This document shows positions 1,707 through 9,738 of a stretch of 64,000 bases of DNA, in pieces. Location: assembly GCA_021295815.1 (NCBI GenBank), contig JAGWBQ010000007.1:124001-188000 (forward strand). The letters are read 5' to 3'. The notes below the pieces were generated by a model. The model worked only from the letters and a program-made list of their open reading frames with translations. It was not told the DNA's origin and made no database searches. The first letter of the stretch is position 1. Every line of letters begins with the position of its first letter. The position numbers were made by a program, and so were the translations under genes. The DNA is from Gemmatimonadota bacterium. GTDB taxonomy: Bacteria > Gemmatimonadota > Gemmatimonadetes > Longimicrobiales > Gaopeijiaceae.

Positions 1707-2575
1707 TCACCTCCGCATTCCGTTGAACGCGTCCGCCATCGCCCGGATGTGCACGGGGGTGGTCCCGCAGCAGCCTCCGATGAAGCGGGCGCCGGCGTTC
1801 ACGAGCCTGCGGGCGTAACGGGCCATGTACTCCGGGCTCGCCATGTAGATCTTGCGGTCGCTGACGTTCCTCGGCATGCCGGTGTTGGGCTGGGCGGAGA
1901 GCGGGAGCTCGACCTCCTCGGCCATTTCCTCGATGGCGTCGAGGGTGACCGCCGGTCCGACCGAACAGTTGAGTCCGACCACGTCGGCGCCCCCGTCTGC
2001 GAGCGTTGCCGCGATTCGTCCGGGGCTCGCGCCGCAGGCGGTCCGTCCGTCCCCGTTCACGGTCATCTGCGCGAAAACGGGGAGCCGGGTCGCCTCCCGT
2101 GCCGCCGCCAGGGCGGTGGCGATCTCGCTCAGGTCGGAAAAGGTTTCGAGGACCAGGCAGTCGACGCCGCCCTCGAGCAGCCCCTCGAGCTGAGGCAGGA
2201 AGCGCCCCTTCGCCTCTTCGTGCGTTACCGCACCGGCAGGCTCGACCCTGACCCCGAGCGGTCCGATGGCCCCGGCAACGGCGGGGGCGCCGGCCGTACG
2301 CGCCAGTCCGGCCGCTCCTCGATTGATCTCCCGGGTGCGCTTGTCCAGGCCGTAGGCGGAGAGCCGGACCGGGTTCGCCCCGAAGGTGTTCGTCTCCACG
2401 ATCTCGGTACCGGCGGCAACGTATCCGCGGTGGATCTCGGTGATGAGCTCAGGCGCGGATAGGTTGAGTTCGTCGTAGCACACGTTCACGAAGACGCCGC
2501 GTTCGTAGAGGGCCGTTCCCATGCCCCCGTCGAAGAGGTGCGGTCGGCCGTCGGCGATCCAGGAGCGGACCACAT

Positions 2576-2579
<4 letters not shown>
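1707..2579 (-). CDS. Stand-alone homocysteine S-methyltransferase domain protein
   Basis: A 290-residue Pfam-type S-methyl_trans (TIM-barrel) protein expected to move a methyl group to homocysteine, giving methionine. The N-terminal LFDGGMGTAL motif, the mid-protein LNCSVGP cysteine (near residue 204) and the C-terminal GGCCGTTP cysteine pair (near 269-270) supply the three zinc ligands that activate homocysteine. It has only this domain: the methylenetetrahydrofolate-reductase half found in YitJ-type fusions is absent. Its ATG overlaps the metH stop in an ATGA overlap, so it is translationally coupled to metH. It resembles the N-terminal module of MetH and may be a paralogue. The methyl donor (S-methylmethionine, betaine or another) cannot be inferred. 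Confidence 0.85.
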
Positions 2580-6373
<3,794 letters not shown>

Positions 6374-6380
6374 GGAGCCG

Positions 6381-6385
6381 CCTCC
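6381..6385 (-). promoter_or_regulatory. Shine-Dalgarno GGAGG of metH
   Basis: On the minus strand GGAGG is followed by seven bases and then TTG, an ideal spacing. It decides the non-ATG start of metH. The last two bases of this site and the spacer are also one strand of a possible long-range pairing with 6464-6472. Confidence 0.7.
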
Positions 6386-6392
6386 ATGCTGG

Positions 6393-6435
6393 GAGCTCCG
6401 GAGCGGTGCGCACTTGACCGGAGCTCGGGTTTTTT
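6393..6435 (+). terminator. Intrinsic-terminator-shaped hairpin reading on the plus strand, inside the metH leader
   Basis: A perfect 9-bp inverted repeat, GAGCTCCGG (6393-6401) and CCGGAGCTC (6418-6426), is followed by GGG and six T (6430-6435) on the plus strand. No plus-strand gene lies upstream, since metH runs the other way, so it would stop only antisense transcription coming out of metH. On the minus strand the same hairpin belongs to the metH leader and has no T-tract. Confidence 0.45.
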
Positions 6436-6512
6436 AGCTGGTTCGGCGGAGCCCCGTGGTCGGGGCGGCTCCGCGCAGGGCCGCAATACACCGCAAATCA
6501 CCCTTGCTGAAG

Positions 6513-6543
6513 ATAATCTGTACTGTTTGGCGCGTCCGGTCAA
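6513..6543 (-). promoter_or_regulatory. Candidate sigma70-type promoter of metH
   Basis: On the minus strand TTGACC (6543-6538) is followed by CAGATTAT (6520-6513), giving a -10 candidate of CAGATT at 17-base spacing or GATTAT at 19. Transcription would begin near 6506, leaving a leader of about 130 bases that contains the hairpins described for metH. The same TTGACC -35 hexamer occurs in front of the ATP synthase operon. Confidence 0.4.
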
Positions 6544-6629: not shown

Positions 6630-9386
6630 CTACCTAGAGAGCCAATAGCTGAGCTTGATCATGAACACGTTGTCCGAGGGCGCGCCGAAGAGCGCGTTCA
6701 TGTCGGAGCCGAAATCGAAGTCTCCGTTGCCGGCGAAATGGTCCCGGCCCTGCGACCAAACAACGTAGAGCAGCGAGCCGGGCACGTATTCCCAGCGGAG
6801 AACGGCGTTGGAACGAAACTGCTTGAAGTTGAAGTCCGGATCGTCGATCGAGGTGTCGACTCCTGAGAGGTCGAAGTGGTGGCGTCCGCCCTCGAGCCTC
6901 GCGTTCAGCGGCTCGAAGCGGTCCTCGTACACTGCGGCCTGCGGGTCCGCGACCCGTTTGAAGTCGGTGTAGCTCCCGCTGCTCACGAAGGGCTGCGCGT
7001 AGACCTGGAGCGAGAGCGTGGGCGTGAAGGCGTGGTCCACGCGGGCGGTGAGTCCGACCGTGGCCTGATCGATCCGTCCGAAGACGTACTCCGACTGCTG
7101 GTTCACGTAGAGGCTGCGAACCCACTGCCGGTCGTTGACCTCCCGCCTGACGTGCCCTCCGATCTGGAGGCTCGTTCGTCCCGAAGGCCTGAAGCGCAGG
7201 TTCGGCGAGGTGCCGAGAGACCAGGAGTCGCTCTCGGGGCGTCTGTTGCCGAACACGGTGGCGCTCGCGCTGACCCGCTTGCGCGAATCGGTGGAAGCTC
7301 CGCTCCAGAAGTTGGTGCCGGATTCGGTGCGGAAGAGGGGGCCGCCTCTGAGGATGCCGTCGGAGAGCGCGGAAGCCGAGTGGTTCACTCCGAACCAGGC
7401 GTTCCAGAAGCTCTTGAACTGGAGGTTGGCGTTCACGTTGCCGCCGACCTCGGTGACTTCGTTCCCGAAGGTGCGGACCGACCACGCGTTCACGTTCGTG
7501 CTCCAGCTCCGGAACGGTCCCTGCGGGGTGCTCCGCTGGTAGCCTCCCCAACCCCAGCCGACGATGTAGTCGGTACTGCGGAGATAGCCGGCGTCGTTGG
7601 TTTCGAAGCCGGGCGTTCTCGCCTGGACCCCCCCGCCGATCCGCCACGGGCTCCCGGCGAACTTCATGATGTCGACGTTCAACGAGCTCCCGGAGAGGCT
7701 CGTGCGGGTCGGGTCGTAGTCGAGGTGTTCCGCGTCCGGACGATGGAAGTAGCGGGCGGATGAACGCTGCGTGCGTGCGATGGCGTCCGCCGAGCCGGTG
7801 ACGACCGATCCGAGCGCGTATCCTGAGACCTGCCAGGCGTCGCCCCTGAAGCGGTGTCGGAAGTCGAGACCGCCGGTGTAGGCGCCGGAGCGGAGATCGA
7901 GCTCTTCGGCGACCGCGCCGTCCCTCCTAAGCGCGGTTCCTATGAAGCCTATCGCCGACCTGCCTTCCCGCAAGTCCTTCTGGAGCCTGAGCACGCCGTA
8001 GTTGGAGAGGGGCTCGACCGGAGTCTCGGTAAGCGCTCCCGTCGCCGGCTGCACCTTGGCGTTCTCTCTCGAGGTCAGGGCGTGCATGGCCCCGATCGAC
8101 CAGCCGGCGGCGGTCTTGCCCGAGAGCTTCCAGGCGCCGAGAATCGTCGTCCGGTCGGGTCGGTCGACGTAGCCGCCACTGGGATCGGCCCGGCCCTGCG
8201 GCGAGCGTCCCACCCGGCGCGGGTAGAAGAGCGATTCGTTCGCCTCGTCGCCGTCGCCCAAGGCGATGGGGAACGAGAAGATCGAAGAACCCTCCAGGAA
8301 GAAGGGGCGTCGCTCGGGATAGAAGGTCTCGAACGCCGTCAGGTTCACCTGGGCCGGGTCGGCCTCCACCTGACCGAAGTCGGGGTTGATGGTCATGTCG
8401 AGCGTGAGATCGGAGGTGACCCCGTACTTGACGTCGGCCCCGAGGGTGCCGAAGGTTCCGTTCGGCTTGTGGAAGGGGTCGGCTTCGTCTCCCTGCACCC
8501 TCTCCAGGCGAGCGAGCGAATAGGGCAGGACTTCGAGCCTTCCGGGAGCTTCGATGTCGCGCAGATCGCGGAGCTCTCCGAACATGCTCACCAGTCCTCC
8601 GTCGGCCCTGGTTATCGGCGCCCAGACGGAGGCCTCCTCGCGCCGGGCGATAACGCGGATGAAGTTGATCCCCCAGGTCTGCACGTCCGCATTGCGGAAA
8701 CGGAGCTGGGAGTATGGGATGCGGAACTCCGCGCTCCATCCTTCCGAATCCCGCGACGTGGCCACGTCCCAGACGGCGTCCCAGCCCGAGTCCTCGTTCA
8801 AGTCGTCGAAACGGTACACGTCGGACTTGACGCCCTTCGGGTTCACCATGAACTGGAAGGCGGTGCGTCGATCGAAGTACGAGTCGACGGCAAGGCCGAG
8901 GAGATCCGAGTAGGAGTCCTGATCGCGCCTGGTCAACTGTCCCACGATCTCGTCGGGTTCGGAGTCGAAGGCCCGCATGGCCACGTAAAGGGCGTTGTCG
9001 CCGTAGAGCACCCGAGCCTCGGTGCGCTCGGAGGCCATCGCACCCTCGTCCGGTTCGATCTGGGAAAAGCCGGTGGCTACCTGCGCCCTCGCCCAAACCG
9101 CCTCGTCGATCACGCCGTCCACCGAGACCTCGCTCCCGTTCACTCGCGTCGCCGTGATGAAGGGGCGCTCGGCGGCGGTTCGACCGTTCGCGATCCTGGC
9201 GGCCGCCGAGCCCTGAGGTGTCGAACCCTTCTCCTGCGAGATCGCCGGAGCCGCGGCGGATGCGGTAAGCGCCACCGCCAGCGCCGCTGGGATCAAGGAC
9301 CGTGACGACGCTCCCGAAGGAGTCTCCCGTCCGCTACATCCGCGGTTTCCCCGCCGCACGCACTTCATCATCGTCGTCATCATCAT
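6630..9386 (-). CDS. DUF5916 outer-membrane protein with CBM9-like N-domain
   Basis: A protein of 918 residues made of a signal peptide, a carbohydrate-binding-family-9-like beta-sandwich (VDGVIDEAVWARA, about residues 80-290) and a long DUF5916 region rich in alternating beta-strands that probably forms an outer-membrane barrel (INPDFGQVEADPAQVNL, PERRPFFLEGS). These proteins are common in Gemmatimonadota and Bacteroidota and have no established biochemical role. I start at the ATG cluster near 9386, preceded by AGGGAGTGAG, rather than at a TTG 29 codons upstream. The C-terminus ends in aromatic YWLSR, typical of barrels. It is upstream of metH on the same strand with 256 bases between. Confidence 0.85.
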   Translation of the reverse strand: MMMTTMMKCVRRGNRGCSGRETPSGASSRSLIPAALAVALTASAAAPAISQEKGSTPQGSAAARIANGRTAAERPFITATRVNGSEVSVDGVIDEAVWARAQVATGFSQIEPDEGAMASERTEARVLYGDNALYVAMRAFDSEPDEIVGQLTRRDQDSYSDLLGLAVDSYFDRRTAFQFMVNPKGVKSDVYRFDDLNEDSGWDAVWDVATSRDSEGWSAEFRIPYSQLRFRNADVQTWGINFIRVIARREEASVWAPITRADGGLVSMFGELRDLRDIEAPGRLEVLPYSLARLERVQGDEADPFHKPNGTFGTLGADVKYGVTSDLTLDMTINPDFGQVEADPAQVNLTAFETFYPERRPFFLEGSSIFSFPIALGDGDEANESLFYPRRVGRSPQGRADPSGGYVDRPDRTTILGAWKLSGKTAAGWSIGAMHALTSRENAKVQPATGALTETPVEPLSNYGVLRLQKDLREGRSAIGFIGTALRRDGAVAEELDLRSGAYTGGLDFRHRFRGDAWQVSGYALGSVVTGSADAIARTQRSSARYFHRPDAEHLDYDPTRTSLSGSSLNVDIMKFAGSPWRIGGGVQARTPGFETNDAGYLRSTDYIVGWGWGGYQRSTPQGPFRSWSTNVNAWSVRTFGNEVTEVGGNVNANLQFKSFWNAWFGVNHSASALSDGILRGGPLFRTESGTNFWSGASTDSRKRVSASATVFGNRRPESDSWSLGTSPNLRFRPSGRTSLQIGGHVRREVNDRQWVRSLYVNQQSEYVFGRIDQATVGLTARVDHAFTPTLSLQVYAQPFVSSGSYTDFKRVADPQAAVYEDRFEPLNARLEGGRHHFDLSGVDTSIDDPDFNFKQFRSNAVLRWEYVPGSLLYVVWSQGRDHFAGNGDFDFGSDMNALFGAPSDNVFMIKLSYWLSR

Positions 9387-9738
9387 CCTCACTCCCTGTC
9401 GGTCACGGTCCTGATAGGTGGATTTCTGGAGATTCGAAGGCCCAGCCCGCCCCTTGGTTGCCTTCGCGCCCAACTACGAGTGTTTGTCCGACGGGTTTCG
9501 GTCGGCCGGTAGGAGGCGAACCCCTCGGCCGGGAACGGCATTTCTCCTGCTCTGCGCCGGCGCGTCCCGACGCCCGCCCGAAGGTCGTCCGCAGCCTGTC
9601 CAATCGGCAACGGTACGGCGCTACCTCGGCCTCGCCGCTCGTGGAGAGATCGGGCGCAGACCGCGCTAGCTTTCTTTGGTGCCGCTTCGGACCGCCGCCG
9701 GCACCCTGACGATCCGCCAATACCGCCGTCCCGTGCCG
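9387..9738. other. Intergenic region between the DUF5916 gene and the dapF-like gene
   Basis: This 352-base divergent spacer must hold promoters for both genes. Apart from the AGGGAGTGAG ribosome-binding sequence of the DUF5916 gene next to 9387, I see no convincing promoter pair, RNA gene or strong hairpin. The dapF-like frame stays open upstream to a TTG near 9676, so part of the right end may be coding. Confidence 0.5.

What the first reader, a model, noticed from the sequence alone, without database searches (positions are those of the whole stretch)
6374..6474. metH leader with mutually exclusive hairpin and RBS-blocking pairing
The minus-strand leader contains GGAGCCGCC (6472-6464), part of a strong local hairpin, that is also a perfect nine-base complement of GGCGGCTCC (6382-6374) covering the Shine-Dalgarno end and spacer before the TTG start. 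A nine-bp hairpin sits between the two strands. This is switch-like logic in front of a gene often controlled by SAM, SAH or B12 riboswitches, yet the sequence matches none of those that I know. It could be a new regulatory RNA class.
Basis: partly seen in the sequence, partly recalled or inferred. Interest (0 to 1): 0.62.

Follow-up and report, generated by a model that had tools for sequence, protein, structure and literature searches.

The report
SAM-II riboswitch with extra helix

Summary
That pairing is not conserved. Among 44 related metH leaders the longest aptamer-RBS complement averages 4.4 nt, the same as mismatched controls; only this leader reaches 9.

The leader is not a new riboswitch class. 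Bases 6508-6428 (-) form a SAM-II-type pseudoknot aptamer (P1, P2, and every SAM-contacting base described for SAM-V/SAM-II), conserved before metH in 93 of 116 genomes searched in its Gemmatimonadota family. Rfam misses it, partly because a helix (P3) is inserted between the P1 and P2 3' strands. P3 covaries strongly (8 of 9 pairs change on both sides) and occupies the place of P3 in SAM-V, which SAM-II is reported to lack. Orthologous metH leaders in related genomes pass the SAM-II Rfam cut-offs.

Most likely function: SAM-dependent repression of metH. Most relatives place an intrinsic terminator right after the aptamer. Here that hairpin lacks a U-tract, so the output step (termination or translation) is unresolved. 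A new variant of a known kind; ligand binding is inferred.

The parts
6510..6543 (-). putative promoter: -35-like TTGACC (6543-6538) and -10-like GATTAT/TATCTT (6518-6510), TSS predicted near 6505
   Evidence: Seen by eye; relatives share TTGG..TACCTT-like elements upstream of the aptamer. Not found by the consensus scan. Inference.
6478..6503 (-). P1 hairpin of the SAM-II-type aptamer: 6503-6500 (GGGU) pairs with 6481-6478 (GCCC); its loop carries UGAUUU (L1 strand) and the 5' strands of P2
   Evidence: Aligned with 28 relatives: 99.1% of P1 cells paired; core bases invariant
6428..6438 (-). 3' strand of pseudoknot P2: G6438 C6437 pair with C6483 G6484; A6430 C6429 C6428 pair with U6490 G6491 G6492; UAAA 6436-6433 holds the SAM-contacting positions
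   Evidence: P2 cells 97.7-100% paired; C-G to U-A covariation at 6490/6430 in 5 sequences; contact positions by analogy with PMC6061858
6446..6474 (-). P3, the extra helix inserted in loop L3: 6474-6470/6450-6446 and 6466-6461/6456-6451.
   Evidence: Covaries across relatives: 8 of 9 pairs change on both sides; 0 of 500 shuffles as high for covariation score. Fold -20 kcal/mol
6441..6444 (-). GAAC linker after P3, the counterpart of the A-minor strand that crosses the P1 minor groove in SAM-V/SAM-II
   Evidence: The two A's are invariant in the P3-type alignment; role by analogy with PMC6061858
6393..6426 (-). 9-bp hairpin in the place where relatives carry an intrinsic terminator; no U-tract here
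   Evidence: -18.7 kcal/mol; 1 T in the 10 nt after the stem; at least 19 of 32 P3-type leaders have 5 or more T there
6374..6385 (-). Shine-Dalgarno GGAGG (6385-6381) and spacer; 6382-6374 is complementary to 6472-6464
   Evidence: pairing not conserved
2576..6373 (-). metH, cobalamin-dependent methionine synthase (TTG start, 1265 aa), the regulated gene
   Evidence: ORF; Pfam
1707..2579 (-). second homocysteine S-methyltransferase ORF (290 aa), overlaps the end of metH by 4 nt, so probably in the same operon

Best explanation
The leader is a SAM-II-type riboswitch that represses metH when S-adenosylmethionine is plentiful. P1 (6503-6500/6481-6478) and the pseudoknot P2 (6492-6490/6430-6428 and 6484-6483/6438-6437) form the SAM pocket. 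A clade-specific helix P3 (6474-6446) is inserted in loop L3, at the position of P3 in SAM-V, and is probably a structural brace or spacer rather than the switching element. In the family SAM binding most likely keeps the 5' strand of P1 inside the aptamer, so the terminator hairpin right after P2 can form; without SAM that strand (GGGGC) can pair with the terminator's 5' arm (GCCCC). In this genome the hairpin (6426-6393) occupies the terminator's place but has no U-tract, so the last step is either U-poor/Rho-aided termination or an effect on the closely spaced RBS. Shown by computation: homology, aptamer architecture, P3 covariation, terminators in relatives. Inferred: SAM as ligand, OFF direction, output mechanism here.
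For: (a) DNA of the leader matches other genera's leaders exactly upstream of metH, and the motif GGGYGATTTG..GGCRTATTGCGGCCC...GCTAAAAAGCC is visible in most of 30 metH leaders. (b) 28 invariant columns include UUU of GAUUU, AUUGC and GCUAAA, i.e. the counterparts of the SAM-contacting bases U8-U10, A18, U20, G21, U47, A48, A50 in PMC6061858. (c) RF00521 passes its cut-off at the orthologous metH leader of G009 (53.2 bits) and at the metH leaders of G073 and G075; RF01726 passes at the metH leaders of G053 and G049. My model R1, built from P3-type leaders only, finds the same place in G009, and about ten further loci are hit by both models. (d) R1 finds one copy per genome in 93 of 116 family genomes; in the window's genome it hits only this leader, 61.8 bits. 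(e) P3 covariation; P3 is clustered on the MetH tree, 2 changes against 12.6 in shuffles. (f) Terminators follow the aptamer in most P3-type relatives, and the start codon lies 46-54 nt after the aptamer in nearly all. (g) P1 5' strand is more complementary to terminator 5' arms than to shuffled arms (-10.6 vs -8.9 +/- 0.3 kcal/mol). (h) All 44 genome matches of the motif are in Gemmatimonadota. (i) SAM-II is mostly a terminator-type OFF switch of methionine genes (PMC1273637, PMC2258182).
Against: RF00521, RF01726 and RF01826 do not reach threshold on the window itself. SAM-II is described as having no P3. In this leader the hairpin lacks a U-tract and the antiterminator pairing is weak (-4.5 kcal/mol). 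The antiterminator complementarity does not covary between individual sequences (34 of 300 re-dealt sets as good). Forcing the aptamer does not change predicted SD accessibility (0.21 either way). One P2 position here is a G-A mismatch (6482/6439). P1 is nearly invariant, so it gives no covariation support of its own.
Confidence: 0.87

Rival explanations
1. One reading: the P3 5' arm (6472-6464) alternates between the local P3 hairpin and the RBS (6382-6374), so aptamer folding directly opens or closes the ribosome-binding site in this genome.
For: Perfect 9-nt complement, -19.5 kcal/mol; the unconstrained minimum-energy fold chooses the RBS pairing (-70.9) over the fold with P1/P2 forced (-66.5, not counting P2 and SAM energy). 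Chance about 1.5% in shuffles. No U-tract here, so a translational output would fill a gap.
Against: Not conserved: the other 43 metH leaders show 3-7 nt, equal to mismatched controls. If SAM favours local P3, the RBS would open with SAM, the reverse of the usual SAM-II direction. The complement comes from repeated GGAGC/GCTCC modules in a 68% GC leader. No second genome of the genus is held to test it.
Confidence: 0.1
2. A decaying riboswitch: the aptamer is still intact, but the expression platform has been lost (no U-tract, no antiterminator), so metH is constitutive in this genome.
For: 1 T in 10 nt after the hairpin and weak antiterminator; genus g11 of the same family has lost the aptamer altogether before metH.
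Against: All core bases are intact and P3 pairs well; other P3-type leaders (L010, L099, L111, L008) also have U-poor hairpins hard against the RBS with full aptamers, suggesting a working alternative platform.
Confidence: 0.12
3. A variant aptamer that has changed its ligand (for example SAH or another SAM relative) while keeping the SAM-II fold.
For: Precedent: SAM-I variants that bind spermidine (PMC10853860).
Against: All positions that contact SAM are unchanged, whereas that precedent carried changes at the contact positions; and the gene is metH, a methionine gene.
Confidence: 0.04
4. No RNA regulation: the hairpins are an unrelated terminator of the upstream DUF5916 gene plus chance pairing in GC-rich DNA.
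For: Intergenic position; overall fold z only -1.0.
Against: Conservation of primary core and covarying P3 across dozens of genera before metH, including genomes with other upstream sequence.
Confidence: 0.01

Closest known systems
SAM-II riboswitch (SAM_alpha, Rfam RF00521)
   Same: Single P1 stem plus P2 pseudoknot, same core sequence (UGAUUU / UUGC / GCUAAA), methionine genes, terminator after the aptamer in most cases; orthologous metH leaders in related genomes pass the Rfam cut-off
   Different: P3 helix inserted in L3 (L3 19-51 nt in these members); P1 of only 4 pairs in most members; Rfam score below reporting level; gene metH and phylum Gemmatimonadota not mentioned in the SAM-II papers I could read
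SAM-V riboswitch (Rfam RF01826)
   Same: Same pseudoknot core and, in particular, a P3 stem-loop in the same place, followed by A's over the P1 minor groove (PMC6061858)
   Different: No RF01826 match in 39 relatives or the window; SAM-V P3 is 3 bp, here 11; SAM-V P2a covers the SD, here the SD lies about 43 nt further on
SAM-II 'long loops' (Rfam RF01726, Weinberg 2010)
   Same: SAM-II core with enlarged loops; passes its cut-off before metH in another family of the same order (G053, G049)
   Different: No match in the window; described from Bacteroidetes and marine sequences (PMC2864571); whether its loops hold a helix could not be read here
SAH, SAM-I, SAM/SAH and cobalamin riboswitches
   Same: Can precede methionine-cycle genes
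   Different: No match to any of the 4227 Rfam families at the curated cut-off

Membership tests
SAM-II (RF00521) | P1 stem closing a loop that contains the P2 5' strand | tested here: met
   99.1% of P1 cells paired in 29 sequences; window GGGU/GCCC. Nearly invariant, so no covariation.
SAM-II (RF00521) | P2 pseudoknot with the 3' strand after P1 | tested here: met
   97.7% and 100% of P2 cells paired; C-G to U-A at one pair in 5 sequences, the window among them
SAM-II (RF00521) | Conserved SAM-pocket nucleotides | tested here: met
   GAUUU, AUUGC, GCUAAA invariant; mapping to contacts from PMC6061858 made by eye
SAM-II (RF00521) | Homology to recognised members | tested here: met
   Orthologous metH leaders pass RF00521 (G009, G073, G075) or RF01726 (G053, G049); R1 hits the same site in G009
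SAM-II (RF00521) | Window leader scores at or above the Rfam gathering score (operational, not structural) | tested here: not met
   No match at E up to 10
SAM-II (RF00521) | L3 without a helix (P3 absent, as stated in PMC6061858) | tested here: not met
   P3 present and covarying. Hence filed as a variant, not as a standard member
SAM-II (RF00521) | Binds SAM and rejects SAH | not testable with these tools
   Needs in-line probing or ITC
SAM-V (RF01826) | Covariance-model match | tested here: not met
   None in 39 genomes at E up to 1
SAM-V (RF01826) | P3 between P1 and the P2 3' strand | tested here: met
SAM-V (RF01826) | SD inside the 3' end of P2/P2a | tested here: not met
   P2 ends at 6428, SD at 6385-6381
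SAM-II long loops (RF01726) | Covariance-model match of the window leader | tested here: not met
   No match in G000
Intrinsic-terminator expression platform | GC hairpin followed by a U-tract | tested here: not met
   Hairpin met, U-tract absent in the window; U-tract met in at least 19 of 32 P3-type leaders

The most novel reading that the evidence does not exclude
A SAM-II subtype whose extra helix P3 makes it an architectural intermediate between SAM-II and SAM-V, and in which, in this genome, one arm of P3 has been recruited to pair with the ribosome-binding site, replacing the ancestral terminator by a translational output coupled directly to an aptamer helix.
Probability: 0.1. Interest if true: 0.6.

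Novelty: new variant of a known kind. Interest (0 to 1): 0.42.

Why it matters
Standard RNA annotation overlooks this riboswitch in most of a Gemmatimonadota family (93 of 116 genomes searched carry it), because short P1 stems and the P3 insert push it below the Rfam cut-offs. The P3-bearing SAM-II fills the structural gap between SAM-II and SAM-V, for which P3 was one of the stated differences. It gives a testable set of natural insert lengths (5 to 51 nt in L3) for asking how a pseudoknot aptamer tolerates a helix next to its minor groove. It also extends SAM control to cobalamin-dependent methionine synthase. The practical gain is an improved covariance model and correct annotation, not a new ligand class.

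Tried and rejected
Rfam on the window at gathering and at E up to 10: no relevant hit. Sub-threshold RF00521 matches in the own genome (C10:82859, C7:279033) lack the core motif and are spurious. RNAalifold on the MAFFT alignment found only P1, because the variable P3 is hard to align and P2 is a pseudoknot; P3 was tested by naming it. The P1-5'/terminator-arm antiterminator was tested for individual covariation: not significant (34 of 300 re-dealt sets as low), although above shuffled arms. RBS pairing tested over 44 leaders: not conserved. A second genome of the genus was sought: none held. SAM-V model tested: no match. No paper linking SAM-II with Gemmatimonadetes was found, but only open-licence papers are held and the supplements of Weinberg 2010 (SAM-II long loops) could not be read.

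Full report
Observation. The sequence claims are exact: GGAGCCGCC 6472-6464 complements GGCGGCTCC 6382-6374 perfectly; a local hairpin holds the first, and a 9-bp hairpin (6426-6393) lies between. A 9-nt complement to the RBS region occurs in about 1.5% of dinucleotide shuffles of the leader. The whole leader's folding energy is ordinary (z -1.0). The gene is an intact metH.

What it is. A DNA search with the leader hit leaders of other genera of the same family just upstream of their metH. Reading 30 metH leaders showed a shared motif, GGGYGATTTGMGGCRTATTGCGGCCC - variable stretch - AACNAGCTAAAAAGCC. This is the SAM-II core: L1 strand UGAUUU, P2 5' strand with UAUUGC, P1 3' strand, and P2 3' strand GCUAAA. 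In 29 aligned P3-type sequences (the window included) 28 columns are invariant, among them the counterparts of all bases that contact SAM in the closely similar SAM-V/SAM-II pocket (PMC6061858). The mapping of contacts is by eye.

Link to recognised SAM-II. Rfam does not report the window. But RF00521 passes its cut-off at the metH leader of G009 (53.2 bits), G073 and G075, and RF01726 (SAM-II long loops) passes at the metH leaders of G053 and G049. A covariance model built only from P3-type leaders (R1) finds the G009 site too, and other metH leaders that score 15-23 bits with RF00521 score 38-53 bits with R1. The classes are therefore homologous by position, gene and model. R1 finds the element in 93 of 116 family genomes (33 of 40 genera), nearly always once, and in the window's genome only here (61.8 bits). 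Across 298 genomes of the phylum R1 hits half, with about 54-nt matches (no insert) nearly everywhere outside the family. A separate exact-pattern scan of 84,980 species gave 44 matches, all Gemmatimonadota. Other SAM-II copies in relatives appear to precede metY/metB-, metX- and hom-like genes (read from translations, not from a library search).

The extra helix. The stretch between P1 and the P2 3' strand is 5-14 nt in some relatives and 19-51 nt, folding as a hairpin, in others. Eight of nine named P3 pairs show changes on both sides; for the whole structure the covariation score is 0.251 against 0.112 in shuffles (0 of 500) and at most 0.095 when slid (P3 carries nearly all of this signal, as P1 and P2 hardly vary). 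On a MetH tree P3 is clustered (2 changes against 12.6 shuffled). SAM-V has a 3-bp P3 in the same place, followed by A's in the P1 minor groove, and SAM-II was said to lack it. The family here keeps an invariant AA just after P3. So this is a SAM-II core with a SAM-V-like peripheral helix.

How it works. In most P3-type relatives an intrinsic terminator begins a few nt after P2, and the start codon is 46-54 nt from the aptamer. The P1 5' strand GGGGC complements the terminator 5' arm GCCCC better than shuffled arms (-10.6 vs -8.9 kcal/mol), though without sequence-by-sequence covariation. This fits a SAM OFF switch by termination, as reported for most SAM-II. In the window the hairpin stands in the terminator's place but has no U-tract and little antiterminator complementarity; L010, L099, L111 and L008 are similarly U-poor. 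Forcing the aptamer fold does not change predicted SD exposure. The output step here is therefore open.

Over 44 metH leaders the longest aptamer-RBS complement averages 4.4 nt, the same as randomly paired leaders (4.5); the window alone reaches 9. It may still matter in this one genome, since the unconstrained fold uses it, but it would tend to make SAM an activator, and no second genome of the genus is available.

Verdict. A new variant of a known riboswitch class. Aptamer identity is strongly supported by computation; SAM binding, direction of control and output mechanism are inferred.

Noticed in passing
window 1707-2579 (-): The second homocysteine S-methyltransferase is a 290-aa single-domain protein here, whereas in relatives the corresponding frame downstream of metH is mostly about 600-1000 aa, presumably fused to another domain (the fusion partner was not identified).
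   Followed up: no
window 6630-9473 (-): A DUF5916 gene precedes metH; in several relatives (L004, L008, L010, L028) the upstream sequence also appears to end in a similar C-terminus, so the pair looks syntenic although the riboswitch separates them.
   Followed up: partly
L013, L015 (G044, G010; genus g11): metH of this genus has no SAM-II aptamer although most of the family does: an apparent loss.
   Followed up: partly
L010, L099, L111, L008 (downstream of the aptamer): A P3-bearing clade has a hairpin ending in CTTCG/TTTCG with no U-tract, right before the Shine-Dalgarno, like the window; a possible terminator-to-translation shift in the expression platform.
   Followed up: partly
L041 (G009 metH leader): This leader reads GAGTT where nearly all others have GATTT in the L1 strand, yet scores 53 bits with RF00521: a possible change at a ligand-near position.
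   Followed up: no
L040, L042-L045, L047: SAM-II copies over the RF00521 cut-off elsewhere in relatives appear to sit before metY/metB-, metX- and hom-like genes, a SAM-II methionine regulon in Gemmatimonadota.
   Followed up: partly
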